Source: Sodiomyces alkalinus F11 (Eukaryota; Ascomycota; Sordariomycetes; Glomerellales; Plectosphaerellaceae). Taken from it: a stretch of 64,000 nt of DNA. Below the pieces are notes generated by a model. It made no database searches. It was not told where the DNA came from and saw only the letters and a list, made by a program, of their open reading frames with translations. The stretch spans positions 1,325,149-1,389,148 of the forward strand of contig NW_021167086.1 in NCBI RefSeq assembly GCF_003711515.1, in the 5' to 3' direction. Made by a program: the position numbers and the translations under genes. Numbering within the stretch: the stretch's first letter is position 1; every line of letters starts with the position of its first letter. Positions 18,409 to 64,000 of the stretch are shown piece after piece.

Positions 18409-18439
18409 TATCTAGAACTTAGCGATATCCACGCGCTAT

Positions 18440-25198: not shown

Positions 25199-25412
25199 TG
25201 TTACGGGTTAACCCTAATATAGAGGATCTGGCTATACTCCGGATCTTCCTAACTACGCGCTTAGTTAATAGACCTATATCGCTAAACTATCGCTACCTTA
25301 TAGCTAGCCTAGCGCTATAGACTTTTCCCTTTTGCCTTCTTCCTTCCTTAGTTCTAGATAATCTATTATTACGACCTTACTTAGTGCCACGACCTATAAC
25401 TAGTCCTTTACA
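25199..25412 (+). repeat. 3' LTR of gypsy E
   Basis: It starts TGTTACGGGTTAACCC, ends CCTTTACA, and is followed by the target duplication GTTAT. Confidence 0.95.
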
Positions 25413-25417
25413 GTTAT

Positions 25418-27397: not shown

Positions 27398-27560
27398 CGT
27401 TATTACGGGTACTACGTATTATAATTAGTTCCTTTACTAGCTCTACGACGTATTTAATCGTGTTCTTATTAGCTAGTAGGGCCTAAATTTCTGCCTTAAT
27501 CGTAGCTAATTTTAGTTCCGGGGGGTGTGGTAATCCCTTTTTAGTCTTATATTAGTTCCG
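27398..27560 (-). pseudogene. LINE1 ORF1 N-terminal part
   Basis: The reverse complement aligns with LINE2 58430-58580 (the AKIKAEI-ALLA region, then RSTRN). It ends at the solo LTR target site. Together with 25418-27135 it forms one broken ORF1. Confidence 0.65.
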
Positions 27561-27800
27561 CATTATATCCTACCTTAGCAGGGGGGGGAGTATTTATATT
27601 ACGAAAAGTGGGTCCGTTATAAATTCTGTATAGTCGAGGTCAGGGCGACGCTATCCTACGACTTTTCCGGCTATATCGTAAGGCCGGTATTACGGTGCCG
27701 CTATGATAGTATCCCGGGAGGGAGGCGGTAGTTATAATCTCTATCCCGGTGGTTTTATAGATTTTACTCTTATTACGCACCCGTGGTTAATAGGCGTGTC
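27561..27800 (-). other. 5' region shared by LINE1 and LINE2
   Basis: The reverse complement is alignable to the sequence left and right of gypsy C (50680-50859 and 58350-58430). It can be read as a frame with RIP stops (DTPINHGCVIRVKSIKPPG), so it may be coding rather than a plain 5' UTR. Either the LINE family includes it, or both LINEs lie next to copies of the same older sequence. Confidence 0.5.
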
Positions 27801-27829
27801 AAAATCCTTTTAATAAAGGTAGTCTATTA

Positions 27830-28277: not shown

Positions 28278-28629
28278 TATCAGGTGCCTGCAGCAGCGGT
28301 CATAATAGGTCCCAAGTCTAAACCCACAGGGGTCTAGGTATGCCTAGTCTAACACCCCTCGAGGCATAAATAAAGTAAGTCGTCACACTGTAAATAGGAT
28401 AATCCCTCGAAGTAAATAAGGCAGCCCTCGAGGAAGTAAATAAGTAGTCCTCGAGGAGTAGAGCGTAGTCTTAAGAAGCGAGGGAGCCTCCCCTTTAAAG
28501 AGGGAGGCCAGCGATTAATCTGATTCTTTAGCTATACCTACGTTCTACCCCAATTATAATCCTATTATAATTATACCTGGTTCCTTATTTAACCCTACCT
28601 TTTCACTCTTTACGACTACCTATTTAATA
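28278..28629 (+). repeat. 5' LTR of gypsy B
   Basis: 352 bases, TATCAGGTGCC...TTAATA, matching 42975-43326 at the same length. It contains a tandem ~25-bp unit around CCCTCGAAGTAAATAAGGCA / CCCTCGAGGAAGTAAATAAG. This LTR keeps CA dinucleotides that are TA in the partner. Confidence 0.95.
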
Positions 28630-28689
28630 TTTTAATCGCTTTACCCTCTAAGGGCGCGAAGACTATTAAGGAGAGTTACTAAGATATCT

Positions 28690-36479: not shown

Positions 36480-39400
36480 CCGAGGTAGGGAATAAGTGTA
36501 GATAGCGGCTCTCCTTAACGGGGGCGCCGATATTAACGTTTTGGATCGGTCCCTCCTAGGACTTAGTTAGGTTCCTAAGGGGTCCCCGGTCCCGGTATCC
36601 TGGATTACGGAAGGATAAACGAAGATAACTCTCGGGTCCACCTATAGGATTATCGTCGCGATAGACTATTAGGGTTAAAAGAGGGTATAACGCGCCGAGT
36701 TCTATGTTATAAATCTTGTAGGCGCGAAGATAATCCTAGGAAGACCGTGGCTTATAGCCGTTAACCCTAATATTAATTAATAGTGTAGTATATAGACCTA
36801 TCACTTATCCTACCCGGAGCTTAGTATAGTTATATTATTAAGAGAACTACGTAGGGTAGTTAGATAAGCTAAGTCTATCCTTACTCTAACCTATATAGGT
36901 TCTACGGGGGTTCCTTATATCGGCTATATTAGCCTTAACGGCCTAGAAAACCCTTTAGTAGGATATAACGATAAATCCTCGGAAGTAGACGTAGAAGGAG
37001 GCCCTGTAGCCCCCGTGCTGCCGGAATAGTATTAAGATTTCGCTAACGTTTTTAATATCGAAAACGCCAGGAGGCTACCGATATACTAGTAGTAGGATTA
37101 CGCTATTAAGATCGAGGAAGGGAAGAAGCGGCCGTATAGTCCTATCTACCCTCTTGCTATATAACAGCTTAAGGTACTATATTAGTACTTACAGGATACC
37201 GTTATAAAAGGATAGATTAGACCGTCTACTAGTCTATCCGGCGCCCCTATCCTATTCGTCCCTAAGAAGGGTAGTAAACTACGCCTCTATATTAACTATA
37301 AAGAGTTAAATAAGGTGACCGTTAAGGACTATACCACCCTGCCCCTAATCCACGAAATTCTAGATCGGTTATCGTTAGCGTAGTACTATACTAAGCTAGA
37401 CCTTAAAGATACGTATTATCGGTTACGGATTCGGGAGGGTAATAAGTGGAAAATGGCGTTCCGGATAAAATATAGTCACTACGAGTACCTCGTTATACTA
37501 TTCGGGATAACTAACGCCCCCGCGAGCTTCTAATAATATATTAACTAGGCGCTAATAGGCCTTATTAACACTATTTACGTTATATACCTCGACGATATCC
37601 TTATCTATAGTAAAGACCTAGTCACCCACTATGTGTATATCCGCGAGGTCCTCGTAAGGCTTAGGTAGTAGTCCTTATATACTAACCCTAATAAGTGCGA
37701 ATTCGAGACTAAAGACGTTAAATTCCTCGGTTTTATTTATAGTCCTGATAGGGTACGTATAGATCCAGCTCGCGTTAAGGCTATCCGCGACTAATAACTT
37801 CCTAATAGTGTTAAGAAGATACAGGTCTTCCTAGGTTTTATGGGTTTTTATAGGCGCTTTATCCGGAATTACTCTAAGGTCGCCGTCCCCCTTATAGACC
37901 ACTTAAAAGAGGGATATATTAGGGTCCTCGTCCTTTCCTAGTAGGCCTAGACCGCGTTCGAGGAAATAAAGCTACTATTTTAGAAGGCACTAGTCTTATA
38001 GTATTTTAACCCCGCCCTGCCTATATGTATCAAACCCGACGCGTCTGCCTTTACAATTAGCGCCGTTATTAGTTAACTCCAGGATAGTTTATAGTGCCCT
38101 ATAGTATTTATATCCTGTAAGCTATATAGGGCGGAGCTTAATTATAGTACGCCTAACTCCGAGCTTATAGCTATTATCGAGTCTTTTCGGATATAGCACC
38201 ACTATATAGCCTATAGTTAGAGCCCTATAGTGGTCCTAATAGACCACCTAAACTATCGCCACCTACTAGATAAGCCGAAGCTTAAGGGGCAGCACGCACG
38301 GGGGCTTAAGGAGCTCGCCCCGTTTGATTTTAAGATTCGGTACCGCCCGGGGATATTAAACCCTGCAGATAGATTATTAAGGAAGCCCTAACATACGCCC
38401 TATAAGCGCGCCCTGGTTACTGACCGGGCTAAGACGGTAGAGCCTTTTTCGAAGCGTTTTATTATCGGCTATATCGGGAACTAGGGTAGTTCCCGTAATA
38501 GCCCCGGTTATGAATTTCCCGCTCCTCCTACCTTAGTGGTTAAGACGTAAGCGGATAACCTCTTTTCCTCTATAGAGTCTATTTCGAAGCGTTTTACCTT
38601 AGGCCTATATAGGATCTAGTATAGTACCCGCGCTATTCCCGCTCTTAACTCCCCTTTACCGGAAAAGGTAGTAGAGGTATAAACGGATAATCTTTCTTTA
38701 GAGCGCTTATTAAGGTATTTTATTTTAGGCCTTATCGGGAACTAATATAGTTCCCGCCCTGCCCCCGATTTTAACCGTAATTTCCCCGCTTTTAATACCC
38801 CTACCTTACTAGAAAAGGTGGTAAAGGCGTAAGCGGATAACCCTTTTTATACTAGATAGCGTAAGGCCCACGGTAATAATATAACGTACGGATATTAGTC
38901 TAGGAGTAGTAGTATCCTTCGTTATAAGAATCGCGTTTTTATGCTAGACTACTCTAGCCTCCGTTAAAAGGTCCTATAGTGTTGCTATAATAGGCCTAGC
39001 GTAGGGCACTATACGGTTACGAGGACTATTAAGAGGATTTCGGACTTCTACTTTTAGGATTATTTACCCAGGGATATCCGGTAGTTTATACCCACCCATA
39101 CTATCTATTAGCGTACTAAGCCGTGGCACTATAAGCCTTATAGCGAGCTAGCGAGTCTCCTAGTGCCCTAGCGCCCCTTTATAGAGATATCTATTAACTT
39201 TATCACGGGGCTACCGCCGGTCCACGGCCTAGGCCGTAAAAGGGATACTATCCTCGTAATAGTATACCGCCTAATAAAGTACTCAATTTATATACCCACG
39301 AGTAGTGCCCTAATAGTAGAAGGACTTACTAAGTCCCTATAGTATCACGTTTTTCGTACTTTTAGCCTGCTTAAGGGTATTATATTAGACTAAGGCTCGC

Positions 39401-40260
39401 TATTTATCAGCCGTTTTTAGGTAACGCTATATCAATATTTAGGTATAGCCAGGCGCCTATCTATAGCGTAGCACCTATAAACTAACGGATAGACGGAGCG
39501 GTAGAACCAGAACCTCGAGCACTATCTTCGTGTGTTCTACTCGTAGGAATAGGATAACTAGGTTAACCGGCAACCGTTAGCAGAGTTCACCTATAATATA
39601 GCGTGGTATTCTACGATACGTCATACCCTATCCGATACTCTAATAGGCTATAACCTAAGAGGACCTAATAAAGTATAGCTTCCGAGGGTAGGCGAGGTCC
39701 GCGCCGCCGAAGCTAAGACCCGGGCGGAACACCTTATAGCCTAGCGCCGGTCTATTTCGGATCTTATTAAGAGGGCGTAGGCCTCCTATAAACGGTATTA
39801 TAATAACGGCCATGCCTAGCGCTCCTTTAAGGTGGGCGAGTACGTCTTACTATCCACGAAGAATATCCGATAGAAAAGACCCTCGAAAAAGCTTAGCGAT
39901 AAGTTTAGTAACTAAGATCGTCGGCACGTATAGCCTAGCCTACTAGTTAGAACTACTAAAGGGTATAAGGATTTATAACGTCTTCCCGGTTTCCCTACTA
40001 GAACTATAGAGGTCCCGCGATAGGTTATAGCCGGAGCCACCCGTAATTAATATTAAACCAGATTCGGATAAGTATAAGGTCGAAGCTATCCTAGCCTATC
40101 GATATTAGGGTAAACGGCGCTAGTATCTAATTAAATAGGCCGGCTATAGCGATAAAGAAAATACCTAGGAGCCGAAGCGGAATATCCCCGACGAACTCGT
40201 CGACGCCTACTTTAAAGCGAGAATATTAGGGAACTAAACGGATTTATACACTATTTCTAT
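36480..40260 (+). pseudogene. Gypsy B Pol: protease, RT, RNase H, integrase, chromodomain
   Basis: Protease begins with ALLNGGADINVLDRSLLGL (about 36505). Here the D-S/T-G motif reads GGADINVLD. It ends with IILGRPWLIAVNPNINW (about 36735-36785). [22 protein letters not shown] (about 37215-37290), then an intact catalytic box VIYLDDILIYS (about 37579-37610), and [19 protein letters not shown]. RNase H runs about 37990-38380 (RYRPGILNPADRLLRKP). Integrase is about 38900-39660 (FIEISINFITGLPPVHG, HLQTNG-TER). The chromodomain is about 40065-40230 (VEAILAYRY-GKRR-YLIK). The RT Asp pair survives, but stops elsewhere make the frame dead. Confidence 0.85.
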
Positions 40261-40829: not shown

Positions 40830-42330
40830 CTATATATATTATTATAGCCCCTTTAGGGCGTCCTTAAACCCCACTAACTTATCGTCTAGAGGGGTAGGCT
40901 CCCGCCTAGCCACCTCGTTATTATTATCCTCTATATATACCTGGCTCTGCCCCGTAGTAGTAACCGCCGTTCCCCGCTCTTACCTACTACCCGCGGATAG
41001 TATCAAAGGCCGTAGAGATAGAGGCGTCTTCGCCTTCTACTACTTCTTCTTCTTCTTCCCTAATAAAGGAGTTAAGGGCGTTAGAGCCTTCTTCCCCTTC
41101 TTCACTAATAAGGCCGGCACTATATCGTTATCGTCGGGCACTTTATAAGAATCCAGGGGACCCTAGGGACCTTACGGCATAAAGCCTTAAGGTTACGCAG
41201 GACTACTATTACTAAATATATCGTTACCTGTAAAGATAACCCCCGCGGGGGCTAAGGTAGACCCTAAGGGTGTAGGCAGGTCTTCCTAGACCTAAGCCTG
41301 GGCTAGGTTAAGAGCGGCTATCTGCTTGAAAGTAGTAGCTATCCGCTCCTAGGCCGCGAGGTCGCGCTCGTGTAATATAAGGTATTATTATTTAATATCG
41401 AGGCGTTTTTACTTAACGGCTAGACGCTACTACTATAGCCCGACGAATTACTTAAGGATCGACTCTATACTATTAAGCCTCTCGTGGATATCTTCCGCCG
41501 TTTTTTAGCGGGCGTCGGTAACTTCTTTAGCTTAACGCCGAGTAGCTATAGCTTCCTTAGCAGATAACCAGTTAACTTCTAGCATTACTTAACCTAGAGC
41601 CTCTTTAAGGATAACCTGGTATCGGACTACTATAGCCTAGTACCGATTAGTAAGGGTACTATATAGGGTTAATAAGGGGATATAGTAATACTTATACGAC
41701 GGCTCTCGTTTAGGCTACCTTTCTCGATAGCGATAACTAAAACCTTTTATAGCTACTCGGTAGCGTTCTTACCGGCAATAGGGAGCTGTTATATATATTA
41801 GAAACGGGTCTACGGAGTGGTCTATAAAGGGAGGAACTATAGCTATAGGGATAATAATAAAGATATATAACTTACCACGCGGTATTTAAGGCTATTATAC
41901 TTAGAGTAGTAGTGGTATTTATTCGTACGCTGACCGTTATCGGCGTATCGGCACGTCTTGGCCTGGATAGTGTGCGTCTTTTCCTTAAAGTTAATCGTTG
42001 CTAACTTACCCGTATAACGTATATAGGGGGCCCTTAGATCCTCGCCTATACTGATATCTACTACCTTCTAGCGGGGAGCGACTAACGGTATAGTAGTCGA
42101 CAACGACGTAGCCGTAGTGGAAGTAGGAGGCTCTAGCGTAGCTGGCTACGGGGCAGACTGCCTAGCGGACTATACGGTCGACGCCGTAACCACGATCTTA
42201 ATCCTCTTAGAGGATCCCGTTACACTCGTAGGAGTGGCGGTGCGCTTATTATTATTATTATCTTCTTAGGAAGGTATAGTAACTATACTATAGCGTGTAG
42301 TTAGCCAGTATTATAGACTAGAGATATATA
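40830..42330 (-). pseudogene. Antisense spliced accessory gene of gypsy B
   Basis: The minus strand between pol and the 3' LTR carries a gene whose interruptions are RIP-type stops. Order: an Asn run and basic patch (EDNNNNKRTATPTS, GSSKRIKIVV, about 42180-42265); a conserved domain PYIRYTGKLATINFKEKT then TNKYHYYSKYNSLKYRV (about 41880-42030), with Tyr at likely CxxC Cys positions; an intron (41786-41875); LPIAGKNATE-L-KVLVIAIEK; then, in another frame, a long helical Glu/Lys/Arg/Gln-rich coiled-coil (EDIHERLNSIESILK, about 41480), a Pro-rich part and a Lys-rich stretch (KKGKKALTPLTPLLGKKKKK). The frame change after LPIAG also occurs in element F, so a second intron is likely. The true start is not visible. 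Homologues lie in elements C and F. Confidence 0.65.
41786..41875 (-). other. Predicted 90-bp intron in antisense gene of B
   Basis: On the minus strand: donor GTAAGT, a TTCTAATAT branch-site-like motif, and acceptor TAACAG. Removing it joins ..NSLKYRV to LPIAGKNA. Element F reads straight through as NSRRYNKLPIAGRN, with no intron, which supports both ends. The phase is 0. Confidence 0.7.
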
Positions 42331-42974
42331 GGGACTACTTATACGACGGAGGATTAATTGATTTATTAATTAAGACTATAAATCGTTAGTACGCGATATT
42401 TTGGATTAGGCAGGACTTACCGAAAAAAGGGTAACCCGACCGAAAAACTGAGTATAGAAGAAGAAGAAAAGAATAGGAAGAGGAAGAAAATAATAGAAAG
42501 AGGAATAACGGCAGGATTACGAGATATCCCTAATAGCAGTTATATAGGTACCTATTTTTAGTATAAAGGAGGAAGCTACGAAGTTCACAGAAGGAGTATC
42601 GACGGGCCCCATATAATACTAGCTTCGGAAATCTTTATAAGTTAATCGAAGGGATAACCCAGGAGAATAAAGGGGGTAGACCCGAAGGCCTTAAAAGGAA
42701 CTATCCTAGAACCTATTAGGGTCCCAAGTAGGATATTAGCTTTAGTAGTTTTATTACTAGAATAAAGGGAGGGGTATATACCCGGGTTAGAGCCACGGCC
42801 GAAAAGGCTCTATGTGGGGACTAAGCGGGGACCTAACAGGGCCATATTATAGAGGGCTCTAGGTCGGGGTATCGGGGTTTTAGGAGTCGGACTCGGAGAC
42901 TAGGTTTAGAGAAGCCAAGAGGCCGGCATAGACCGGGCGCTCCTAAGGATAGGAGTATCCGGGGGAGGTCGCTA
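42331..42974. other. Gypsy B 3' region: purine tract and LTR-proximal sequence
   Basis: It holds the likely promoter side of the antisense gene, a GAAGAAGAAGAAAAG-type purine-rich stretch (about 42455-42510), and the polypurine tract at 42958-42971. The last ~60 bases (CGCTCCTAAGGATAGGAGTA..) recur inverted at 62590-62650 in element F, showing that B and F are related at their 3' ends. Confidence 0.6.
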
Positions 42975-43326
42975 TATCAGGTGCCTATAGTAGCGGTTAT
43001 AATAAGTCCCTGGTATAAACCTATAAGGGTCTAGGTATACCTAGTCTAAGACCCCTTAAGGCATAAATAAAGTAAGTCGTTATATAGTAAATAGGATAAT
43101 CCCTCGAAGCAAATAAGGCAGCCCTCGAGGAAGTAAATAAGTAGTCCTCGAGGAGCAGAGCGTAGTCTTAAGGAGCGAGGGAGCCTCCCCTTTAAAGAGG
43201 GAGGCTAGCGATTAATCTGATTCTTTAGCTATACCCACGTTCTAACCCTATTATAATCCTATTATAATTATACCTGGTTCCTTATTTGACCCTACCTTTT
43301 CAATCTTTGCGACTACCTATTGAATA
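42975..43326 (+). repeat. 3' LTR of gypsy B
   Basis: 352 bases, partner of 28278-28629. It ends ATTGAATA and is followed by TAGGG. Confidence 0.95.
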
Positions 43327-43331
43327 TAGGG

Positions 43332-44966: not shown

Positions 44967-45087
44967 ACCTTAATTCCTGCGGTCTAGTTATTCTATTTTG
45001 GGTTTACTAGGTAATTTATTACGGAGGATTTCCTTTATTTAGCACCGAGTTATACTATATCCAGCTTCTACTAGCCTTTAGCCTTTA
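44781..45087 (+). mobile_element. 3' fragment of a second Tad-like LINE (LINE4)
   Basis: Plus-strand sequence matching the reverse complement of LINE3's 3' end (29740-30060), running from the ORF2 C-terminus into the 3' UTR and cut by the gypsy D LTR. It is heavily 5'-truncated, or trimmed by rearrangement. Confidence 0.85.
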
Positions 45088-45091
45088 TGAC

Positions 45092-45305
45092 TAAAAACGA
45101 CTAGTTATGGGTCGTGGCACTAAGTGAGGTCCTAATAATAGATTATCTAGAACTAAGGCAGGAAGAAAGAAGAGAAGAAAAGTCTATAGTGCTAGGCTAG
45201 CTATAACGTAGCGATAACTAGGCGATATAGGTTCGTTAACTAAGCGCGTAGTTGGGAAGATCCGGAGTATAGCCGGATCCTTCATATCGGGGTTAACCCG
45301 TAACA
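45092..45305 (-). repeat. 3' LTR of gypsy D
   Basis: Its reverse complement starts TGTTACGGGTTAACCCCGAT and follows the gypsy E LTR for ~214 bases. The outer end is uncertain by about 5 bases. Confidence 0.85.
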
Positions 45306-45635
45306 CTATCCCCCCCCTCTTCCTCCGGGGGCTATATAACCGCGCGTCCGTGTTATAGCTCGACTCCCCTTTACGTCGCGGTAATAAAGGAATAGTCGTG
45401 TCCCTTTATCTTACCTCGCCCTTACCTTAATATTAAAGAAGCTTAAGTCGCCTACTAATCTTTATTTATATACCTAAAATAGGTATATAGGCCTTCCTTA
45501 TATAAATCTATCCGTAAATATATTAGGCCTATTTTCCTCGTAGGCTTTATCTTCCTCTATTCCTCTCCTTAACTTTAATTATAATAATAATAATAGTATT
45601 AGCAGTTCTGTATATACTTACTTTTCCTTATAGCG

Positions 45636-46826
45636 ATGACTTTTTCTGACTCTGTTATTTCCTAGCTAATATCTATCGATACTCGGCTAGTTTAAGAGCT
45701 CTCCGTCTAAAGTAAGCCGTCTTTTTCTCGCGATCTATTTATAAGGTACCCTCCGCTAACTTCTATCGTTTTATAGATAGCGCTAGCCCCTAGCGATAAT
45801 AAGGGTAATAATAGTAGGAAACGTACCGCTGATAATAATATAGGTATAATACTCTTACGCCTTAAGGCGATACTAACCGTATAATAGTTCGTGTTATCGC
45901 TATCGCCTCCGCCTAAGAAGAAGAAATCGGCGGGTAGTCGGTCTCCTAAGCAGCCTCCTAATAACGCTTATACTAAGCCGTGCCTCCTTTACACGCGCGA
46001 TATTACTAATGAAAAGTATAAACGCTTTTATAGTAGCTAGAGTAGTCGGGGGAAGAAATACTATATATACTCTATAAAGATATACCGGTATACTCCTCTT
46101 TTAATATACCTTAAAGGCTACGTGTAAAGCTTATTCGAGACGGTTATATTTATTAGCGATAATAATAAAAACACCCTTATAAGACCTCCTCCCCCTTTAA
46201 GGTTATAACCGTATCCCTAACCCTTTTTCTAGGAGTAGAAACCGTATCTTAACGCCTACGCGGCGTTCTAGGATACCCTTATAGCTAGGGAAGGGATAAT
46301 AGCGATATTGCTTATAGCTATATATCCCGCGGAGGCTCCTAACACGGTAATTACGCTAGCCCCTTCTCCTTCTTAGAAGGTATAAGAAAAGGTAGCACCG
46401 TAGTTAGCCTTACTACCTCTTTCTAAAATCGTTAATAAAATAACTAAACTAGCCTTACTTCCACTAGTAACGGAGGTTATTAATAAAGTAGTTACGCTAG
46501 TTTTTACTTCTCCTTTAAAGGTTATAGAAAAGATAGTGTTAGGACTAAACTTATCGCCTCCGGAAGAGGTTATTACTAAGACGGAATAGCTAGCCTTATC
46601 TCTTCCTTATAAGGTTATAGGTAAGGTAATAGTTTCGGGCGTAATCCCTTTTTAATATATAGCGGAAAAGAACGCTTATCCTATTACTCCTACTCCTTTA
46701 TCGGGGTTAATATTATTAGATAAAGACTTTAGGCGTCTTAGTCTTATAGAGCTAAAGGAGTATACTTAGCTATTTAGGGAGATACTTATACTTAGTCATG
46801 CTAATATCGTGATCTCCTAACTCTAA
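45636..46826 (+). pseudogene. Antisense accessory gene of gypsy D
   Basis: Second copy of the gene at 23683-24869, again opposite to gag-pol. It opens MTFSDSVIS (ATG 45636-45638; the E copy has ACG there, so this ATG may itself be a RIP product). It continues with PPPKKKKSAGSRSPK, then PCLLYTRDITNEKYKRFYSS and RGKKYYIYSIKIYRYTPLLI (about 45985-46110), LFETVIFISDNNK, Pro-Leu-rich repeats (KVIEKIVLGLNLSPPEEV), and LDKDFRRLSLIELKEYT near the end. Tyr in YTRDI, YYIY and KIY probably replace Cys. D and E agree at most positions across this gene, including outside the putative zinc module. Function unknown. Confidence 0.6.
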
Positions 46827-47240
46827 TAATACTCGGAGTGTATACGACGCCTACGGGTATAACTATTACTAGCGCGGTTATAATCCCCGATAATAACGAT
46901 AATAAAGGCGATAATAAGGTCAAGGAGACGGACTCTAACTTATAATAGGGCGATAAGGGTAAGACTTTTACGAAAGTCGATAATCCCGAGGATAATAATT
47001 TTAAGGCTAATAATATTAATCTAGGCTTATATTAAGCGTGGCTAAGGCGCGGGGCCTATCCGGCCTAAACTAAATCTGACTCTTACTTCTTTCTAATTAT
47101 CGCGATATAATCGCTTATGTATCGGCTCCTATATTATAATAGCGCGAAGGTATCTAATAGGCTATTATTCGTTATTACTAAGCCGAATTTTCTTTTAAAC
47201 TTATTAAGTACCCGCGTTTACGCTAATAGTTCTAGGGGTT
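46827..47240. other. Gypsy D spacer between antisense gene and pol
   Basis: It holds acidic/Asp-Asn codon repeats (GATAATAAGG-type units) on the plus strand that may still be coding in the antisense gene, then the 3' end of pol. I see no separate gene. Confidence 0.4.
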
Positions 47241-50200
47241 CCTACATAGAGTTATAGTATCCTACCTATTATACTAATACCTTATATCTTAATCTCTTAC
47301 CTCGCCTTTTTATCCTTATATAAAGGATTTCCTCGACTTCCTATTCTTTATTATCGGTTACTTCTCAAATAAGCAGTGGTTAAGGGTTATCTACTACTTA
47401 TCCCGGAAAAGGGTTATCGCCCGCGCGATATAATAAGTGTATAGAGAATCGGGGGTAGATCTACGATAATAAGATAAGCGGAATTATATATAGGCTAATT
47501 ACCTTTATAACTTAGTATTTACGATAAAGCTAGTTAAGCTTATATAATAATCGCGGAGTTAAATAGTTAGCTAATAATAGCTAGACTAAGTCGTTAACCT
47601 TAAAACGCTTAGCCGGTATACGATATTAGTTAGCAGACTCCTTATTCGTAAGCTATATCGATACGATTATAGCCTAGGCGAACTCGGTCGCTTCTTATAA
47701 GCGGCGTAGTAGAATATAGGCCGCGAATACTCTAGATTCTATAAGCGGCTCCTTAGTTATCTAGATCGGGTTAATATAATAGCTATAATCTAAGAAAAAG
47801 GGACTAAACCCTATTATAAAGCTCTTACGGTTATTTAGGGCTAGCTATGCTACGGGTAGTAGGCGATCCTAGTTATCCTAACCGTAATAGATAAAAGCTC
47901 GTAAATAAGCTTATACTTCTTAGTTTATACGCTTTATTACTTTATCGGTTTAGGGGTAGTATACTATACTAAGCTTATATAATATCCGTGCGAGCTCGTA
48001 AAAGTGCTTCTAGAACCTACTTATCTAGTTTAAACCTCGGTTACTAATAATCGACCTAGGTATTACGTAAAACCGGAAATAATAGTATACGAACTATTTC
48101 GTGTAAGCTTCGGCTTTTATTATCTTTATCGCTCCTAATATTATAGTCTTAGTTAAACAGTCTGTAATAACCTAAAGGTAGCGCGCCTTCTTCTCGCCGG
48201 CTAGTAGTAGGTCTATTATAAAGTCTATTAATAGGTCGCTCCGTATTAGTTCTAGTACTGGAAAAGGGCGTAAAAGGCCTTATTTCGCGTTTCTCTATAT
48301 ATACTCCTTTCTATAAACGTTATAGTTCCGGATAAATTATCGGATATCCTTATTTATCCTCGGCTAGAAGAAGCGATATGATACTAAGGCGATAGTATTT
48401 TCGCGTCCGGGGTATCCTCCGATTACGAAGTCGTGAATTAACTAGATAATCCTCCCTTATAATATTAACCCTTTAATAGACCCGGGCACTTAAATTCGGT
48501 TGCGGAATAATAGTAACCGGTCGTAAAGACTAAATACTCGGCTATTTATAGCTTTAATTCTAATAATAATAGGAAATTACTATTCTGCTTTAATAACCGC
48601 AGATAAGCCTCCTTAATACTATTTATCGGTTATAAGCGTCTTATCCTATAATTACTATAACTTTTAGTCCGCCTCGAAGATCGTTCAACCACTATTAACA
48701 TAACGAATACTAAGTTGAATCGCGGTATCGGGAATTAATTAGATATAATAAGATTACTCCCGTTTATCCGTTATATCTTAGGGCTTATCTTATTATTAAC
48801 GTAAAAGGGCGTCTGTTATTATATTATCCTCCCCCTTCCGATACTCAAGCACGAAATTAAACTATATAAGCTTATTAGCTTATCGGCTTTATCGCTTAGT
48901 AAGTATTCGCTTTATTATAAAGTATTTAAGGGCCTTATAATCAGAACGGACTATGAACTACTTATAGCTAATAAGCTTAGCCCGCTATATAGCTAAATAA
49001 CTTATAATTATTAGTATTTCCTTATCGTGGATTAGGTAAATATATTCTACCCTATTAAGTTTATAAGAGTAGTATACGACTATATAGCGATTTCCGTCCG
49101 CATTTTCTTATATTAGGCTACCCTTAAAGGCGAACCCCGAGTAATATATATCGATAAATATCTTATTTACTAGGTCCTACTATCGTAGTATCGGGCTTTC
49201 TTAGAACCTCGCCTTTAGCTTATAAAAGGCCGCTTTTTCCTTAGGACCCTATTACAAGGCGTAGTCTTTCTTAGTAAATACTATTAATAAGGTCAAGATC
49301 CCCGAAAAGTCCTTAATAAAGATCTAGTAATAATTTATATACCCTAGGAAGCTTCGCACGCCCTTAACCGTTATAAGCGTTTCCTACTCGTGGATAGCTT
49401 ATAACTTCTTTAGGTTATAAGATACGTCTTTCCCCGCGGTAACTATAAATCCTAGGTACTTTACTATCTTTACGCTAAGCTTATACTTTAACGAATTTAG
49501 GTTTAGGCTAGCGTTTACGAGCGCGCGGAGTACTTACTTTACCTTCGCTTCGTAGTTAGCCTAACTCCTATTAAAGTAGACTATGATATCGTTAATAGAA
49601 GCGGTAATAAAGTTATCTAAGAAGTATTATAGTATTTTATTAATATATTATTAGAAATATACAGGGGCTTTACTTAAGCTAAATAGGTAGATAAGCTATT
49701 TAAAAAGTCTAAACTAAGTTCGGAATATTGTCTTATATTCGTATCCTAAGGCTATCCTAATCTTATAGAAAGTAACGACAATATTAAGCTTTATAAATAA
49801 TTTCACTTAGGTTAGGTTTTATAGTATCTTAGCGATTAAAGGGAATAAGTAACGGTCTTACTTAATAATAGTGTTTAACGCTTAGTAATTATAATAAAAA
49901 TACAGTCGTCTGCCTAGACTCCTTATAAAAAGGATAGGAGCTACGGCTTCTAAACTACTAGCACGGATAAATCCCTTATCTAATAGGTTAGTAAATATTT
50001 TTCGTAATACTAGGAGTTCTTCTCTTAATATATTATAGAATAGCCCTTAGGGAAGCGATGGTTCTTTACCGTTACTTCCGGGTATAAGGTCTACCTTATA
50101 GTCGACTCCTGATTTATATAGCGGTAATTAGTTAGCCTTATCGGGCGTAAATAGGTTACCGAATTCTTATAATAGCTCTTTAGGTATAAAGTCCTTTACG

Positions 50201-50660
50201 TCCGCTAGTTATTTCTTATATAACGCTTTTTCGATATCCCTTAAGCTTACTCCCTAGACTAAGACTTCTTCGCCCTTTTAGTATAATTATCGGATAATAC
50301 CCGCGAATACGGATCTAATAACTAAATACGTATCGCGGATAGTTTATGCTTTAATAGGTTCCTTTTTATAATAAAGTCGTATATTTAATCTAGTTACTCC
50401 GTGGTAAAGCCGTTTATCCTTAGCGTAATACGTTACGTTATTTCATTCTATCTAAGGCTTCCCAAGGAATACGTCTTAATTAAGCCCGGGTATTATATAT
50501 ACGAATATCCTTTACGGGTAGCCGCCGATCTTAAGCTTATAGATAGTAATCCCCGCGCTACTAATAGTCCTAGTAGCTTCCGAGAAGATATTTAGTAGTC
50601 GATGTATTTTATTAACTCATAGTAATTAAAGTCTCTAAGTAAACTATTTACTTATAGCGG
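47241..50660 (-). pseudogene. Gypsy D Pol: protease end, RT, RNase H, integrase, chromodomain
   Basis: Minus-strand counterpart of gypsy E pol. The RT catalytic box reads SINDIIV near 49580-49600 (first Asp to Asn). The chromodomain region is near 47290-47360, integrase about 47600-48450, RNase H about 48800-49200, RT about 49200-50150, and the protease end about 50400-50600. Stops are TAA/TAG. The frame is cut at 50662. Confidence 0.8.
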
Positions 50661-50859
50661 CATCGATTTCGACACGTCTATTAACCACGGGCGCTTAATA
50701 AGAGTAAAACCGATAAAACCACTAAGATAGACATAATAGCTACCGCCTCTCTCCCGAGATACTATTATAGCGGTACCGTAATACCGGCGCTATGGTATAG
50801 CCAGAGGAGTCGTGGGATAGTATTATCCCGACCTTAACTATACAGAATTCGTAACAGAC

Positions 50860-51252
50860 TATCAGAATATACAGTGCTTAGACGTTACCATAGGACGAGC
50901 ACCAGACTTATACATAGATAGAGGGGTCGTAGTCAGGTTAGACCGTTAAAGATACGACGCGTCGAGGTCTAGTAAGCTAGTCAGCTTAGAAGTCAGCTTA
51001 GATCTAGTAAGCTAGTTACCTTAGGAACCAGCTTATACCTAAACTTAGTTCTAAGGAGGCCTCTCGCCACCCACTTAGTTAGAAGACCTTAGGTAAGTAT
51101 AAAGAGGGGAGTGTCTTCTATAGTTCCTAGAGTCTTAGAGGGACTTAATGAATAATCTTATTACGATAGCCCCTCTTTCATTCCTACTAATCCCTATATA
51201 ATTCTATATCGTCTAGTAGTTACCTATTACTCCTTATAGTATACCTATAACA
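50860..51252 (+). repeat. 5' LTR of gypsy C
   Basis: It starts TATCAGAATATACAG and ends CCTATAACA. The last 300 bases (50953-51252) match 58050-58349. It contains a duplicated GATCTAGTAAGCTAG / GGTCTAGTAAGCTAG unit. Confidence 0.85.
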
Positions 51253-51339
51253 TTTTATTCGGTCTTCCCTTTTACACGGGTATAATAACCAATAGGAATT
51301 ATAACGATTAATCCGACCTATATACCACTAAAAACCAAC

Positions 51340-52700
51340 TATTAATAAAACCCTAAAAGGCTATTATACCTTAACGCGCTAATCCGCTAGTTCCCCTTTT
51401 TATAGGACTTATAGATAATAACGACGAAGGATCCTTTTCCTTTTTACCCCCTCCTCCCTCCGATAATACCCCTAACCCTAATACTCCTAATCCTAAAGGA
51501 TAAAGGGATAACTGTGTAACGTGATATACTTACTTAGACCTTTAGAATCTCTCTATAATAAACCTCTAAGATACTAAACTTATAGCGGAGACCCGTTATC
51601 TCGAACTACGTCTTAAAAGGAAAAAGAAAAAACGCCGGCTTAAACTTCTACATAGCGGTATCGACCCCGATACTATCACCCCTATAACCTCCTAAGAGCC
51701 CTCCTAGTCCTTTTTAGGTATACTAATATAAGGTAATAAGGTAATTAAAATTAATATAGATATCCCTAAGTAGGATAGAGTATTCTATAATAGATATCTT
51801 ATTTTTATCGAGGATATTAAGTCCCGGATCGTATAAACCCTAACCGCTTTTATACCAAACTATCTAAAATATTCTACGCCTCTAATAGTCTCCTATAAAC
51901 TATTAAGTCATTATAGCGTTAGTATTGAGAGACTACCTTCGGATATATAAATTGTAAAAGAGGAGCTACTTAGGAAGATATAAAACAGTTCCTCGCTAGT
52001 CTACTAGTTAATAATAATACCCGGGAGATATCTATCACGGAATAACTATTCTCCGACTATCTATAGTAGAAACTAGACTAATCCTATAATAGATTCCTAG
52101 ACTTTATAAATAGACTCTTTATGGAAGTTCCTATTATTCTTAACGATAAAATTCGTATATAGTTAATTCTTAATAAGTTATAGAAGCCCCTTAAAGACCG
52201 GATCCGTGCTAGAGGATTACCGAAATTAATTAAAGAGCTCTATATAGCCGCCCGCTAGGCCTAGGTTACCTTAATCTAGAATACCGAGGATAATAACTAG
52301 CCTTATTCTTCCTTATTAGCTTATTAACGGGCTAAGCGTAACGATAAGCAGAAAAGATAGTTAAGCCCTTTACGTGGTTATAACCAGAATAACACTAAGG
52401 GCACTAAAAGATAAGATAAGGATATATCGGATAAACCCTAGAAGAACCCCCGTATTACGCTATTACCCCCTATTAAGGAAATCGAGTATTTTTACTATTA
52501 CGAAAAAGGCTATTATCGCTTATCGTGCCTAAAGGACCCTAGGAAGACGAATTAGAACGCTAATAGGCCTTAGAATAATACCCAGAATAAGTCGCCTAGT
52601 ACTAATTCCGTATTAGTAGATCCTAAAAGAAACACTATAATAGGTTAGGTATAGGTCATACTTTCTAAGGAACCCTTATAATAGGAACGCGCGCCATCTA
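51340..52700 (+). pseudogene. Gypsy C Gag with zinc knuckle (broken)
   Basis: A plus-strand frame with a basic segment (RKKKKRRLK-like, about 51615-51640), the Gag core (about 51930-52260, with FLDFINRLFMEVPIILNDK near 52100), and a zinc-knuckle relic YFYYYEKGYYRLSCLKDP near 52490-52540 (CxxCxxxGHxxxxC with two Cys and the His changed to Tyr). Ends are approximate. Confidence 0.65.
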
Positions 52701-52739
52701 TATTAGCACCTCTTTCCTATAATCCCCTAAAGGTATAAC

Positions 52740-55700
52740 TTAGTTTACGATAAGGCGGTATATAATAAGATAGCGAATAGACCTCCTACTATACTTATAT
52801 AGATTTAGGTTCGAAGTTAGATATTATTAATCGCACTAGCCTTCTACCCGCTTATAAACCCTTAGGACCTGCTAAGGACGTTGTATAGTTAATACTAGGT
52901 TAGTAGGGAAAGACCTACGGTATTATAAAATTAATCTACTAGATTATAGATAGTTAGGACAGGACCCGAGCTAAAACTATTATGTTTTACGTTATAGATT
53001 TAGATCCCAATAGCGCCTAGATTATCCTTAATCTTCTATAGCTCTAGTCCTATAGTCCTAGTATCCACTAAAAGGATAAGACGTGGACTTTTCGTCTTTA
53101 GAAGTCCGAAGTAACTCTTATTACTATAACCCGCTAGCTATATAAGGCTATTAACCACGCTACCACGGTAATCCCTTTAATAGTATAAACTACCACGGCC
53201 GTCTATCCTACGCGTTTAGGCCAGATTATAACTACTACCTAGAACCCTCCTTAAGACTACTAGGAGTATATCCAGAACTCCCTTAGCCCCCCTAATAAGG
53301 ATACCCTCTCTGCACTATACTATGATTTTACTAACGCTTTTAACACGGTTAAAGCCGGTCGCCTCCTATAGCATTATAAGTAAGACCACGTGATTAAACT
53401 TAATAAGGGTAAATCGCCCCCTTTGAGTTCTATCTACGCCTTAGCTAAGGAGGAACTCATAGCCTTAAGGGAGTATATTAAAGATACTTCGGCGAAATAA
53501 TAGATCCGGCCTTTATCTAGTCTAGTAGGCGCCCCTATCCTTTTTATCCTAAAGAAGGGTGGAAAGCTAAGACTATATATAGACTACTAAGGACTTAATA
53601 AGGTAACTAAAAAGGATCGCACACCACTCTCGCTAATTTATAAGATTTTAGACCGCCTATCTTATTTACTAATCTATCCGAAATTAGACCTTAAGGACGC
53701 CTATTACCGGCTACGGATCCGAGAAAGCGATAAATAGAAAACCGTATTCCGGACTAAATACGGTTATTACCAGTATCTAGTAATACCTTTTAGTCTTTAT
53801 AACGCTTTTACCTCCTTTTAACGGTATATTAATAAGTCTTTATAAGGACTTATAGATACTATTTACGTTATTTACCTAGATAATATCCTAATCTATAGCT
53901 CGGATATAGTATCGTATTAGCGATATATACGGAGTATCCTATAATAGTTACGGGAATAGTCCCTATACGCTAATCCGAAGAAATATACCTTTAAAATTTA
54001 ACAGGTAAAGTTCCTCGGGTTTATCTATAGCCTTTATAGTGTCTTTATAGACCCTAAACGGGTAGAAGCTATCCGAGATTAGGAAGAGCTAGACACGATT
54101 AAGACGATCCAGGTTTTTTTAGGATTCACGGGTTTTTACCAGCGGTTTATTAAGGCCTACTCTAAAATTATAGCACTACTAACTAACCTATTAAAAGACG
54201 GGGGAAGAGTAGGGGTCTTTAGATTAACCTCTAAGGAGCGGGATACCTTTCGGCTATTATACTAGAAATTTTAAGAGGCGCCCGTTCTTCGATATTTTAA
54301 CCTAATATTATTAATTCGGATTAAGCCGGACGTATCGAGTTTCGCCTTCGGCGTAATTATTAGTTAGCTTAATATAGACTAATAGTAAAGACCTCTAATA
54401 TTCTTCTCTAGGAAGCTATAATTAAACTACTTTACCCCGGATACCGAGCTTATAGCTATTATAGAAGCTTTTCGATAATAAAGACACTACGTCGCCTACG
54501 CGTAAACCCCTGTGGAGGTACTAACGGACTACTTAAACTACCGCTACCTTCTTGAAAAACCTAAGAGAAAGGCCTAGCACGCCCGATAGCTTAAGGAGTT
54601 AGTAGTTTACGACTTTATTATATAATACTAACCGGGTATTAGTAGCCCTATAAATAGCCTCTCAAGGAAGCCTTAGTATATAGTAAGAAGTCTTAACCTT
54701 CGTATAGAGTAGTAAAAGCCGGTTAAAGTATTCACGTAAAGGTTTACGGTCGGACCCGTTTACGCTACCCCTAATACTACCCCTACTCCTTACGAAGATA
54801 TAATAACATTATTACCTACTCTTAAGGATAATATTATAAAAGCCTAATAAAAGGACCCTTTTTATAAGTCGCTATAGAAAGGTACCCCGATTAACCCGTG
54901 GTCCTATAATAAATAAGGTCTAGTCTTTTTCCGTAATAGGCTTTTTATACCGAAATACTCCGGTCTCCGAGAATAAATACTATAGGCTTTCCCGACTACC
55001 TTCTAGCTAGATACTATAGAATCACGAGGACCCTTTAGCGTACTACGGACATCTTCTTTTAGGAAAATATAAAATAAGACGTTAAGACTTTCGTCCTTAT
55101 TTACCCTATTTATTAAAGGACTAAGCCTAGATATTATAAACCCTACGCGTACCTTTAGAGTCTCTCTATACTAGGCCGTCTATTCTAGGAAATTTTAGTC
55201 GATTTTATTACTAGCCTACCGCCCGTAATACACAGAGCTAGGAAAAAGGGTATTATTCGTATCGTTATATACCGGTACACGAAATTTACCCTATATATCC
55301 TATATAGCTTTAGTTTAAGTATAGAGAGCTTAGCAAACCTTATATAGTTTAGTATCTTCTTTATCTTTAGCCTACTAGATAGTATTATTTCTAACTATAG
55401 TTTTTTATTTATAAGTAAATTTTAGTTTACGCTATATAGGCGCTTAGGACTTAAGAGGCGACTATTAATAGTATTTTATCCGTAGACCGATAGTTAAACT
55501 AAGCGCTAATATTAGAACCTAGAGTATTACCTATAGACCTATTATACCTATTAGTAGGATAACTAGGTAGATTAGCTTTTATTAGCTTAGTTCACGTATA
55601 ATACCGCGTGGTATTCTACGATTTAGTAGTCCCCCGCTATAGTATTTATAGGCTATACCCCCCGAGGACTTAATAACGTTACGCTCCTTAAGGCTAATAG

Positions 55701-56260
55701 GTTTTACGCTATATTAGCCGATAAATATATTAAATACCTAATAACGCATAGAAGAATACTCGTAGACTTTATTAAGAAGGCCTAGGAGATATATATAAAG
55801 TACTATAATACCGATAAACTTACCTATGAATAAATAAAAAGTAATTATATCCTCCTCTTTACTAAGAATATTAAGTAGAAGCGTCCTAGTAAATAACTCT
55901 CGGATAAGTACTTAGGACCCTACGAAATTAAGGACGTTATAAGGAATTATAGCCTCGCCTATAAATTAAAGCTTCCGTTAACTATAGGAATTTATAATAT
56001 CTTTCCTAATTCCCTCTTAAAGCTATAAAGTCCTTGTATAGACGGCGTCCAGGTCCCCTAGGAAGTTAAGGTAAAACCTTAGGAGTCCGATAAGTACGAA
56101 GTTAAGGATATCCTAGCCTACCGTTATAATAGAAACCGCCGCTAATACCTAATTAAGTAAGAAGGCTACGGATACAAGGAAAGTACTTAGGAACCCATGC
56201 GAAATATCCCCGAATTACTCCTTTATAAGTATTATGCTAGGAGGTCCCGATATACTCCTT
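52740..56260 (+). pseudogene. Gypsy C Pol: protease, RT, RNase H, integrase, chromodomain
   Basis: Protease start near 52795 (YIDLGSKLDIINR; the D-S/T-G motif reads DLGSK). RT: GAPILFILKKGGKLRLYIDY (about 53525-53590), catalytic box VIYLDNILIYS (about 53870-53900, second Asp to Asn), and F-RYINKSL. RNase H about 54300-54680, integrase about 55180-55620 (FITSLPPVIHRARKKG), and chromodomain EVKDILAYRYNRNRR-YLIK (about 56098-56160). Overall order and length match gypsy B, but LTRs and sequence differ, so it is a related yet distinct family. Confidence 0.85.
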
Positions 56261-56469
56261 AGATAAATACTTAGAACGCCTTAGAAGTTTAATCCTAATA
56301 TAATAGGTCTAGGAAACACCTCACGTATTAGAACTTTAGGAATTTATATACCGAACCCGTAAACCTCCTAAATTAGGGTCTAGAAAATTAATTATTACCC
56401 CGTAAGGACTTATTATTATACTAGATAAAAAAACTAGAAAACGAAATATAAAGGCCTAAAGCCCCCTAA

Positions 56470-57480
56470 TATAAATACTTAGTAACTATATATTAACCAC
56501 CCCTTAACCCCCCTCTTACTACGGCTACTTACTAAGTAGGAACACGTATAAATATTCACCTATAGCTATAAAACATAGTAGCGTACTCTTTATAATCTCC
56601 TAATAAGACTAAGTATCTTAAACCGCCTCTTTAGCGGCGCGGCGGACTATAAGAGCCTTATTAAAGCCCTAACGGGTTTAAGCCTAATAGCCGCTTCTAG
56701 CCTTACCTAGTAAAACTTATAGCTTCTTTAATTCGGCCTATTACTAAGTTAGTAAAATATACTCTTTTAGGGGGTAAGATTTATTTATAAGCTACGTATC
56801 GGTATAATAGCCGTGTTTATTGGCCTTAATTAGATAACGCTATATACGGTTACCTAGTAACTTAGTCTTAAGAGTTATCTAGAAGTCTATTAGTAATCCA
56901 TGGAGTAGCTTATTAGGAAGGGGTTATAATTGCTTACCTTTACGTAACCCCGAGAACTATTACCTTAGTAATATTCGTATTTATACGAATTAATGGTATA
57001 CGCCTTCTTATAGGCGCTAAAGATAATATAGTCGCGACTACTATCTAGCTTAAGACGGAGGAAGTGCTACGTATAACGGTTATAAGGAGCGCGGGGGTAG
57101 GTGCCCTTTATACCCTCCTTAACCGTGTATATAGTATCCTCCTACGGCTTATTATCGCCTTTATAGGTATTAGCTATATCCTTATCCTTATCGACCTTAT
57201 TAACCATGTCGGGGTCCGTATTATCCTTATCCTCCTTTTCCTCCCCGTGGTTAACTATAACCACCTTACTACCCTCCCCCTTAAAGAACCTCTTAAAGGA
57301 ATCGTTATTAATTATAATAATACTATTATTATTATTCTCTTTATACTTATTAGGAGCGTACTCGCTACCCGATAATAGCTTAATAATAGGGCTATTACCC
57401 TAGTTAATTACTTTAGTAAGAGTATTATTATTATTATTCGTAATACTATCTTACTAGCCTAGTATTAGTCGTAGCGTTAT
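56470..57480 (-). pseudogene. Antisense spliced accessory gene of gypsy C
   Basis: On the minus strand between pol and the 3' LTR. Exon 1 has Asn runs and acidic/basic segments (SFKRFFKGEGSKVVIVNHGE, DMVNKVDKDKDI), then PRAPYNRYT-HFLRLKLDSS, RDYIIFSAYKKAYTINSYKY and EYY-GNSSRGYVK (about 56940-57090). The core parallels B (PYIRYTGKLATINF...YHYYSKYNSLKYR) and F (PYSRYAS-LAKINF...FYFRYNSRRY), with Tyr at likely CxxC positions. An intron follows at the same place as in B (56879-56937). Exon 2 is helical and Gln/Lys-rich (AELKKL-VLLGKARSGY, then ALIVRRAAKEAV). Start and end are approximate. Confidence 0.6.
56879..56937 (-). other. Predicted 59-bp intron in antisense gene of C
   Basis: On the minus strand: donor GTAAGC, a textbook TACTAAT branch site, and acceptor CTTCTAG. 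It lies just after the CxxC-like region, as does the intron of element B (41786-41875). Confidence 0.65.
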
Positions 57481-58049
57481 ATTCTCCTACCGGAGATTCT
57501 CTATATACTTTATAATAAGCGCTAACTAGTCTTTAGTTAGGTTATTAGATATAATAAAGGAGGATATCGGCGCGTTAATATTAGAAACTATTTAATATTA
57601 AAAATAAAGACTACCCCTTATTACTTATTAATCGTTAACGGGAGAAGTGTAGAGCTATTTACTTATAGTATAGGAGCTATAAATATACGCTTAGATTAGG
57701 AAAGAAAAATATTAGAAGAAAGTTATACGAGAAAATAGTTAATATTATTATTATTATTATAGTAAGAGATTAACTAACTCTAAAGAGCCGCGTATACCTT
57801 CTTTATATCTACTATGACGATATATTATACCTACTATTAGACCTCCTATATCCTTTGACTCTTACCGTAGTAAGATCCGTGCTAGTTAATAGTAACACTA
57901 TAGGCAATCTCTTTATATACTTACTTTAAGGATATTTTAGGTATATTATTTATTTATATAATAGTTATTTATAGATTCCTTTTCACTTCGCTTTTTAAAC
58001 TAATTATACTACCCTTAGGACCTTTATACCGAATAACGTCTTTATTGGA
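57481..58049. other. Gypsy C 3' region before the shortened LTR
   Basis: No coding frame is recognised. It contains AT-rich ATT/AAT runs (about 57740-57760), and would include the promoter side of the antisense gene and the polypurine tract, neither of which I can pinpoint. Confidence 0.35.
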
Positions 58050-58349
58050 TATAACGCATTAAGGTCTAGTAAGCTAGTTAGCTTAGAAGTTAGCTTAGAT
58101 CTAGTAAGCTAGTTAGCTTAGGAACCAGCTTATACCTAAACTTAGTCCTAAGGAGGCCTCTCGCCACCTACTTAGTTAGAAGACCTCAGGTAGGTATAAA
58201 GAGGGGAGTGCCTTCTATAGTTCCTAGAGTCTTAGAGGGACTTAACGAATAATCTTATCACGATACCCCCTCTTTAGTTCCTACTAGTCCCTAAGTGATC
58301 CTATATCGTCCACTAGTTACCTATTACTCCTTATAGTATACCTAGAATA
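58050..58349 (+). repeat. 3' LTR of gypsy C, missing its first ~93 bases
   Basis: Matches 50953-51252 and ends CCTAGAATA. The upstream 93 bases of the 5' LTR have no counterpart before 58050, so a deletion or local rearrangement removed them. Confidence 0.85.
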
Positions 58350-58429
58350 TAGACCCACTTTGTATGATATAAGCGCTCCTGCCCTCTAAGGTAGGATATA
58401 GCGCGGAACCGATATAAGACTAAAAGGGG

Positions 58430-63340: not shown

Positions 63341-63349
63341 TACTATACC

Positions 63350-63362
63350 TCCTAAGGAGACT

Positions 63363-63397
<35 letters not shown>

Positions 63398-64000
63398 GCG
63401 GCCGGTATCTAAGCTAGTAGCTAGTAACGCTTCTAAGAAGCGTAAAATAATAATAGCTATAGTATCGTTATCGTTAACTACCCCTTATCAAGAGGTAATA
63501 GACGTTAGGGAAGGGGCCACCGGGGGCTTAACTCTTAGGGACCCTTACTCCCGCTACGCTAGCTAGCTAGCTAAGATTAATTTTAGTAATAAGACGTCGT
63601 GTTTACAGTTCGAGTTATACCGGTACTCCGGTGCTATATCTGCTAAGTACGCCTTTTACTTTAGGTATAATAGTCGCCGTTATAATAAGCTTCCTATCGC
63701 GGGCCGTAATACCGCTATCTAATTATAGAATATCCTTATCGTCGCTACTACTAAGGATAGGATAAATAATAGCCGTCGCGTAAATTCTTTTTGGGGGGTA
63801 ACCCTAATATAGATATATACTAACCGTGCTATAGACTATATCTATAAAATACTAGAATATCCTTAAGGCCTCCTTAGGTAAGATTAGGAGGGAGATAACC
63901 TTTACCGCCGCCGATAAGTCTTATACCGCTTATCGGTCGAAGGAAGAAGTCAATAACGCCTATTAGAAAATAGCGGATAAAATCCTAAACTCTTTTTAGA
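63350..64000 (+). pseudogene. Antisense accessory gene of element F (runs off the window)
   Basis: Plus-strand frame, opposite to F. It has a run of eleven Asn codons and NKRPVSK, then the basic SNASKKRKIIIAIV. The conserved domain is LRDPYSRYAS-LAKINFSNK, then SAKYAFYFRYNSRRYNK (about 63550-63700), with Tyr at likely CxxC sites. LPIAGRNTAI-L-NILIVATTK continues without the intron seen in B. A frame change follows, then a helical KSYTAYRSKEEVNNAY like the coiled-coil start in B. The 3' end is outside the window. Confidence 0.65.
63365..63398 (+). repeat. AAT microsatellite encoding poly-Asn
   Basis: About eleven AAT units in frame with the antisense gene of F. Shorter Asn runs occupy the same place in the genes of B and C. 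Confidence 0.85.

What the first reader, a model, noticed from the sequence alone, without database searches (positions are those of the whole stretch)
40830..42330. A family of antisense accessory genes shared by three different Ty3/gypsy elements
Seen in sequence: elements B, C and F carry, between pol and the 3' LTR and on the opposite strand, frames whose only breaks are RIP-type stops. They share an Asn-rich and basic N-terminal part and a PY.RY core ending in a CxxC-like YNS.R/NSSRGY motif (B 41880-42030, C 56940-57090, F 63550-63700). The LTRs of B and C are unrelated. Established: plain Ty3/gypsy elements encode only gag-pol, and accessory genes in fungal LTR elements are known in a few cases. 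Inference: a conserved protein, perhaps DNA- or RNA-binding, made from an antisense promoter near the 3' LTR. It could regulate the element or its host.
Basis: partly seen in the sequence, partly recalled or inferred. Interest (0 to 1): 0.82.

Follow-up and report, generated by a model that had tools for sequence, protein, structure and literature searches.

The report
Spliced antisense gene in fungal retrotransposons
Three families of damaged fungal jumping genes carry, written backwards at their far end, a related extra gene, apparently with introns, for a protein of unknown kind, which suggests that such elements once made a third protein besides the two textbook ones.

Summary
The main observation holds. 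B and F (chromodomain Ty3/gypsy elements) carry between pol and the 3' LTR, on the opposite strand, one homologous gene (core and exon 3; about 430 codons in B). C shares the core only, more weakly. Net length changes among copies are multiples of three in the long exons (B 22/24, 19/23; F 22/25, 24/29), not in introns (12/28, 7/28; 5/20) or upstream (9/29, 14/29, 9/28): a reading frame once under selection. Splice signals and codon pattern favour the antisense strand; stop counts in exons 2-3 do not. No copy examined is open throughout; no transcript data. The kind is known: antisense genes occur in plant elements and, as brtn, in Botrytis Boty; homology to brtn could not be tested. Function is inferred: basic stretches suggest a nuclear nucleic-acid-binding accessory. 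A Scd6/LSM14-like Sm domain is a weak lead. The 'CxxC' motif is absent. The 3' ends of B and F are related although the pol of B is closer to that of C, which suggests exchange of 3' modules or fast change in C.

The parts
40833..42277 (-). Antisense accessory gene of element B, whole extent (3' end approximate)
   Evidence: last residues read in frame end near 40854
41876..42277 (-). B exon 1: Asn-rich/basic N-terminus and the PYxRY core (core 42067-41882)
   Evidence: 22 of 24 net length changes are multiples of 3 (21 of 24); lowest stop density of six frames
41786..41875 (-). B intron 1, phase 0
   Evidence: GTAAGT in 25 of 29 copies, AG 29 of 29, CTRAY 29 of 29; length change multiple of 3 in 12 of 28
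41696..41785 (-). B exon 2
   Evidence: 30 codons joining exons 1 and 3 in frame; 2 of 29 copies change length, neither by 3
41637..41695 (-). B intron 2, phase 0, position shared with F
   Evidence: donor GTAAGT 15, GTGAGT 4, ATAAGT 10 of 29; AG 27 and branch site 27 of 29; length change multiple of 3 in 7 of 28
40833..41636 (-). B exon 3: probable helical part, Pro-rich and Lys-rich stretches and conserved C-terminus (end approximate)
   Evidence: aligns with F exon 3, hhalign E 6e-23; 19 of 23 length changes multiples of 3
37258..40216 (+). B pol (RVT_1, RNase H, integrase zinc-binding below cut-off, chromodomain at 40073-40216)
42975..43327 (+). B 3' LTR (353 nt)
   Evidence: 91.5% to the copy at 28278-28630; 7 of 7 other copies end at 43321-43328
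42940..42972 (+). Inverted repeat and purine-rich tract before the B 3' LTR, shared with F
56500..57346 (-). Antisense gene of element C, ends approximate (core exon 57138-56938; probable intron 1 56937-56879)
   Evidence: intron read by eye
50951..58350 (+). Element C between its LTRs (50951-51253, 58048-58350)
   Evidence: pol domains
63345..63779 (+). F gene, first exon (N-terminus and core; no intron 1)
   Evidence: 22 of 25 length changes are multiples of 3
63780..63834 (+). F intron at the position of B intron 2 (end approximate)
   Evidence: donor GTAAGT 17, GTAAAT 7, other 6 of 30 copies
63835..64000 (+). F exon 3, continues past the window to about C8:1389747

Best explanation
The three chromodomain Ty3/gypsy families carried, as a regular part, an extra gene expressed from its own antisense transcript. 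That transcript started inside the element upstream of the 3' LTR and was spliced (two introns in B). In B and F the gene gave a protein of roughly 430 residues: Asn-rich N-terminus with basic clusters, a compact conserved core, then Pro-rich and Lys-rich stretches and a conserved C-terminus. Shown: a past protein-coding frame, intron places with antisense splice signals, B-F homology in core and exon 3, C homology in the core. Inferred: transcription and splicing; that the protein entered the nucleus, bound nucleic acid through its basic stretches, and served or tuned the element's own cycle, as is proposed for plant antisense accessory proteins and reported for HTLV antisense proteins.
For: Frame preservation in the long exons and not in introns or upstream DNA. 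Splice signals on the antisense strand, kept in most of the 29-30 copies aligned, both B introns phase 0 and joining the frames. B-F homology in core and exon 3; C-F core homology. Codon positions B vs F in exon 3 (21 of 30 copies of each): differences 0.491/0.398/0.584, position 2 lowest, as expected of the antisense frame; best sense frame 0.434/0.455/0.573. Transversions shared by two or more B copies favour third positions, 18/11/33. High copy number: 150 core matches with the B query, some of them F copies; 37 F-like rows of 108; 25 C-like rows of 28. Basic stretches are directly visible.
Against: No RNA or protein evidence. None of the 30 B, 30 F and 9 C copies aligned is open throughout. 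F within-family substitutions show no significant third-position excess, nor does B if singletons are counted. A sense frame has fewer stops than the antisense frame in exon 3 of B (4.73 vs 8.68 per 100 codons) and F (4.56 vs 5.11) and in B exon 2 (0.95 vs 5.76), and sense-sense similarity is also high (72 vs 88.6 bits). In the exon 1 core B vs F the codon-position contrast is small (0.414/0.426/0.563, and transversions do not favour position 3). No known domain passes a curated threshold. The function is not tested.
Confidence: 0.6

Rival explanations
1. The core is a Scd6/LSM14-type Sm domain, and the protein works on element RNA in P-body-like granules (translation, decapping, particle assembly).
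For: PF12701 is the commonest Pfam hit of B cores (13 of 26 copies, best E 8.3e-4; 18.4 bits for L020). Scanning all 43.4 Mb with PF12701 at E<=10 gave 7 matches: the host Scd6 and 6 more, and all 6 lie in B antisense copies (E 0.1-0.87). Profile comparison of B with LSM14 scored above all 200 shuffles; F aligns in the same register but 5 of 200 shuffles reach it. Yeast Ty3 depends on P-body proteins including the Sm-like Lsm1 (PMC4589538, abstract).
Against: The hits are far below the 30-bit cut-off and cover about 22-33 residues. None of 23 F cores and none of the three C pieces scanned has such a hit. Profiles A1, A2 and A3 find no LSM14 chain in the PDB at E<=10. The C match to LSM14 is out of register, 2 of 200 shuffles reach it.
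Confidence: 0.12
2. The coding strand of the exon 2-3 region is the sense strand (a further sense frame after pol), and the antisense match is its mirror.
For: Fewer stops in one sense frame of exons 2 and 3 and 72-bit sense-sense similarity B-F.
Against: Introns with antisense splice signals bound this region in frame; the antisense B-F score is higher (88.6 bits); position 2 is the most conserved only in the antisense register.
Confidence: 0.06
3. No protein: the region only makes antisense RNA that silences the element through dsRNA, and the frames are accidental.
For: The gene is convergent with pol, so read-through transcripts would overlap (inference); antisense RNA roles are discussed in PMC7264820 (passages).
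Against: Length changes in threes in exons only, amino-acid homology between families and shared introns need a translated frame in the past.
Confidence: 0.03
4. The gene is a host gene captured by one element and spread by recombination.
For: It has introns; B and F share their 3' module although the pol of B is closer to that of C.
Against: No copy outside the three kinds of element was recognised in the own-genome searches, though most matches were not inspected for context; no protein matched in two searches.
Confidence: 0.1

Closest known systems
brtn of Boty-like Ty3/gypsy elements, Botrytis cinerea and Sclerotinia (Zhao et al. 2011; only the title and citing passages seen)
   Same: Antisense gene in a fungal chromodomain LTR element, listed among antisense genes between pol and the 3' LTR in PMC7264820
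   Different: Host group differs; whether brtn is spliced or similar in sequence could not be tested: its sequence was not at hand
Plant antisense accessory ORFs (Grande gene23, RIRE2, Retand, PvRetro13)
   Same: Same place and orientation; [quoted passage not shown]
   Different: Retand proteins mostly carry TRP28 (PF04195), not found here; the word intron does not occur in PMC11963269
HTLV antisense genes (HBZ, APH-2)
   Same: Antisense accessory protein of an LTR element, nuclear (passages); that HBZ mRNA is spliced is recalled
   Different: No sequence relation was tested; virus of another host kingdom
Scd6/LSM14 N-terminal Sm domain (PF12701)
   Same: Short RYxGxLxxI...T pattern in B, in register in F
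   Different: Below threshold, partial, no other Scd6 domain found

Membership tests
Antisense accessory gene between pol and 3' LTR (aORF-3R class) | Lies between pol and the 3' LTR | tested here: met
   B and C in the window; F partly outside it, its 3' LTR placed by where F copies stop matching
Antisense accessory gene between pol and 3' LTR (aORF-3R class) | Opposite strand to gag-pol | tested here: met
   Splice signals and higher antisense homology; stop counts in exons 2-3 disagree
Antisense accessory gene between pol and 3' LTR (aORF-3R class) | Present in most copies of a family | tested here: inconclusive
   Dozens of copies per family, but pol copies were not counted for comparison
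Antisense accessory gene between pol and 3' LTR (aORF-3R class) | Transcribed from its own antisense promoter | not testable with these tools
   No RNA data
brtn | Sequence homology to BRTN | not testable with these tools
   Sequence not held; protein searches found no hit of any kind
Chromodomain Ty3/gypsy (chromovirus) | RVT_1, RNase H and chromodomain | tested here: met
   for B, C, F; integrase zinc-binding domain seen in B (below cut-off) and F only
LSM14 / Scd6 Sm domain | Match over Pfam gathering score | tested here: not met
   18.4 bits against 30 in the best hit whose score was shown for a single protein
LSM14 / Scd6 Sm domain | Sm fold | not testable with these tools
   Predictor off
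Retand TRP28 proteins | PF04195 domain | tested here: not met
   Not among the hits

The most novel reading that the evidence does not exclude
Fungal chromodomain elements encode, from a spliced antisense mRNA, their own Scd6-like Sm protein that steers element RNA between translation, decapping and particle assembly, and that travels with the 3' end as an exchangeable module.
Probability: 0.08. Interest if true: 0.85.

Novelty: new variant of a known kind. Interest (0 to 1): 0.52.

Why it matters
It gives sequence evidence that does not rest on RIP-sensitive sites (length changes in threes, splice signals) that extra antisense frames of fungal LTR elements were real genes, and it adds introns with places shared between families. 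Such introns can persist because the genomic RNA is the other strand (inference), so they mark antisense expression. It gives annotators usable marks (core, introns, C-terminus) and makes the open question of what these proteins do testable in less damaged hypocrealean relatives.

Tried and rejected
Within-family substitution tests: weak (B modest, F not significant, where the F first exon was cut short at 110 codons by my anchor), because RIP and neutral decay swamp them; length changes proved better. The line 'upstream 240 nt' (22 of 24 multiples of 3) is an artefact of slices cut at a fixed distance from the core; it was replaced by the control. Rfam gave one match, tRNA-like, at 12540. Protein search with the B first exon (0 hits at E<=1, 11 candidates) and the F first exon (0 hits at E<=10, 199 candidates): the control with host Scd6 shows that the database holds many fungi (601 hits, 120 listed), but the word filter limits reach. 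C second half as homologue of exon 3: rejected for want of support. Pfam hits to Colicin-DNase, NTF2_YvbJ, Glyco_hydro_4C and others: one to three copies each, taken as chance. Recombination against faster change in C as the cause of the B/F 3' similarity was not resolved.

Full report
What was checked. The window lies in a 43.4 Mb assembly (G000, contig C8). Its DNA is strongly RIP-marked: TA/AT 1.76 and (CA+TG)/(AC+GT) 0.27, against 0.67 and 1.19 at the host Scd6 locus. The host Scd6 found 601 proteins, of which the 120 listed are, where named, from Sordariomycetes; the best is from Tolypocladium (93%), with Fusarium and others at equal identity. So the host is probably a hypocrealean fungus (inference; family not settled; Tolypocladium lineage). 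The ORF tool found none of 120 codons or more in the window.

The three genes. The B core query matched 150 places; the weaker ones (about 38-55% identity) include F copies. The F query gave 37 F-like rows of 108, most others being B copies from E 2.4e-7 downward. The C query gave 25 C-like rows of 28; the other three are F copies at E 0.003-0.007. Pol of all three ends in a chromodomain and runs the other way.

Gene model. I aligned 30 of the B copies and 30 of the F copies. B has an intron after the core exon: GTAAGT in 25 of 29 copies, AG in 29, a CTRAY branch site in 29. A second intron has donors GTAAGT 15, GTGAGT 4, ATAAGT 10 of 29, AG 27 and a branch site 27 of 29. F lacks the first and has the second at the same codon (donor GTAAGT 17, GTAAAT 7, other 6 of 30). 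C keeps GTRAG one codon away from the place of intron 1 in 9 of 9 copies aligned, with a likely branch site and acceptor (read by eye); no second intron was seen in C. At the expected start none of the 30 B copies has an ATG, while F copy L046 does.

Frame test. Net length changes against the reference copy: B exon 1, 22 of 24 are multiples of three (21 of 24); exon 3, 19 of 23; exon 2, two changes and neither a multiple. F first exon 22 of 25, exon 3 24 of 29. B introns 12 of 28 and 7 of 28; F intron (with about 21 nt of exon 3) 5 of 20. Three upstream stretches of B 9 of 29, 14 of 29, 9 of 28. Copies are related, so these counts are not independent events, but the contrast within the same copies is large. 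Length changes do not tell the strand; the splice signals do, with support from codon positions in exon 3 and from the higher antisense score. Against this stand the stop counts: the antisense frame is the emptiest of six in the first exon of B and F (3.63 and 2.88 per 100 codons), but in exon 3 of both and in B exon 2 a sense frame is emptier.

Homology between families. hhalign: B core-F core E 1.6e-12; B exon 3-F exon 3 E 6e-23; C core-F core E 1.4e-4 over 55 columns in register; none of 100 shuffles reached these. C core-B core is weak (12 columns, score 19.2; 0 of 100). The second half of C did not match (68 and 16 of 100 shuffles as good). Exon 3 of B and F (18 sequences, 282 columns) has 26 invariant columns, one of them a stop column, and a lysine-rich stretch.

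What the protein may be. No Pfam model passes its cut-off. The one repeated lead is LSM14: 13 of 26 B cores, best E 8.3e-4. A scan of the genome with that model gives host Scd6 and six weak matches, all in B antisense copies. It covers only 22-33 residues, F and C do not share the hit, and PDB profile searches do not find LSM14. I keep it as a lead. Basic clusters near the N-terminus and the Lys-rich stretch suggest nuclear entry and nucleic-acid binding (inference).

Module history. Reverse transcriptase identity, one copy of each: B-C 65%, C-F 51%, B-F 45%. Antisense core: B-F 35%, C-F 28%, B-C only an eight-residue match. A 49-nt stretch at the start of the 3' LTR is 92% identical in B and F and was not found in C. 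Its 33-nt heart (an inverted repeat and a purine-rich tract, taken as the polypurine tract) occurs exactly at 33 places, 27 in the B form and 6 in the one-base-longer F form, with 0 in the reversed control. So B joins a C-like pol to an F-like 3' end. Exchange of the 3' module is one reading, faster change in C another; the shared intron 1 of B and C fits the second better. Both stay open.

Known precedents. PMC8365987 and PMC4227169 (passages) and PMC7264820 (passages) cite brtn, an antisense gene of Boty-like elements (Zhao et al. 2011, title seen in reference lists only). PMC11963269 (passages) reports antisense ORFs between pol and the 3' LTR in its Retand elements, 97% of clusters with TRP28. 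In PMC3248453, a survey of fungal LTR elements, the words antisense and brtn do not occur (passages). Of the searches, in an open-licence library and with capped lists (one search listed nothing), I recognised no paper on a spliced antisense gene in fungal LTR elements; I judged by titles and starts of abstracts.

Verdict. A real, apparently spliced, antisense accessory gene family in damaged fungal elements: a new variant of a known kind. My odds: gene reality about 0.9, antisense strand about 0.9, nucleic-acid-binding accessory role about 0.5-0.6, Sm-domain reading about 0.1.

Noticed in passing
window 42940-42957 (+) and 62608-62625 (-): Inverted repeat before the purine tract at the 3' LTR of B and F; the 33-nt block is exact at 33 genome places, none in the reversed control (an exact search cannot tell how many copies have changed).
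   Followed up: partly
L039 2634-2882: Four copies of a 63-nt tandem repeat between the F antisense gene and pol, as in about half of plant Retand elements.
   Followed up: no
window 28278-28630: A B-type LTR copy (91.5% to 42975-43327), apparently solo.
   Followed up: no
window 16956-27806 and 45079-61519: Large inverted similar blocks, mostly 82-86% identical, perhaps nested elements.
   Followed up: no
window 12540-12611 (+): tRNA-like match of 35.7 bits in RIP-marked DNA.
   Followed up: no
L069 2498-2761: A diverged relative of the F core (50% identity) near a contig end, perhaps a fourth subfamily.
   Followed up: partly
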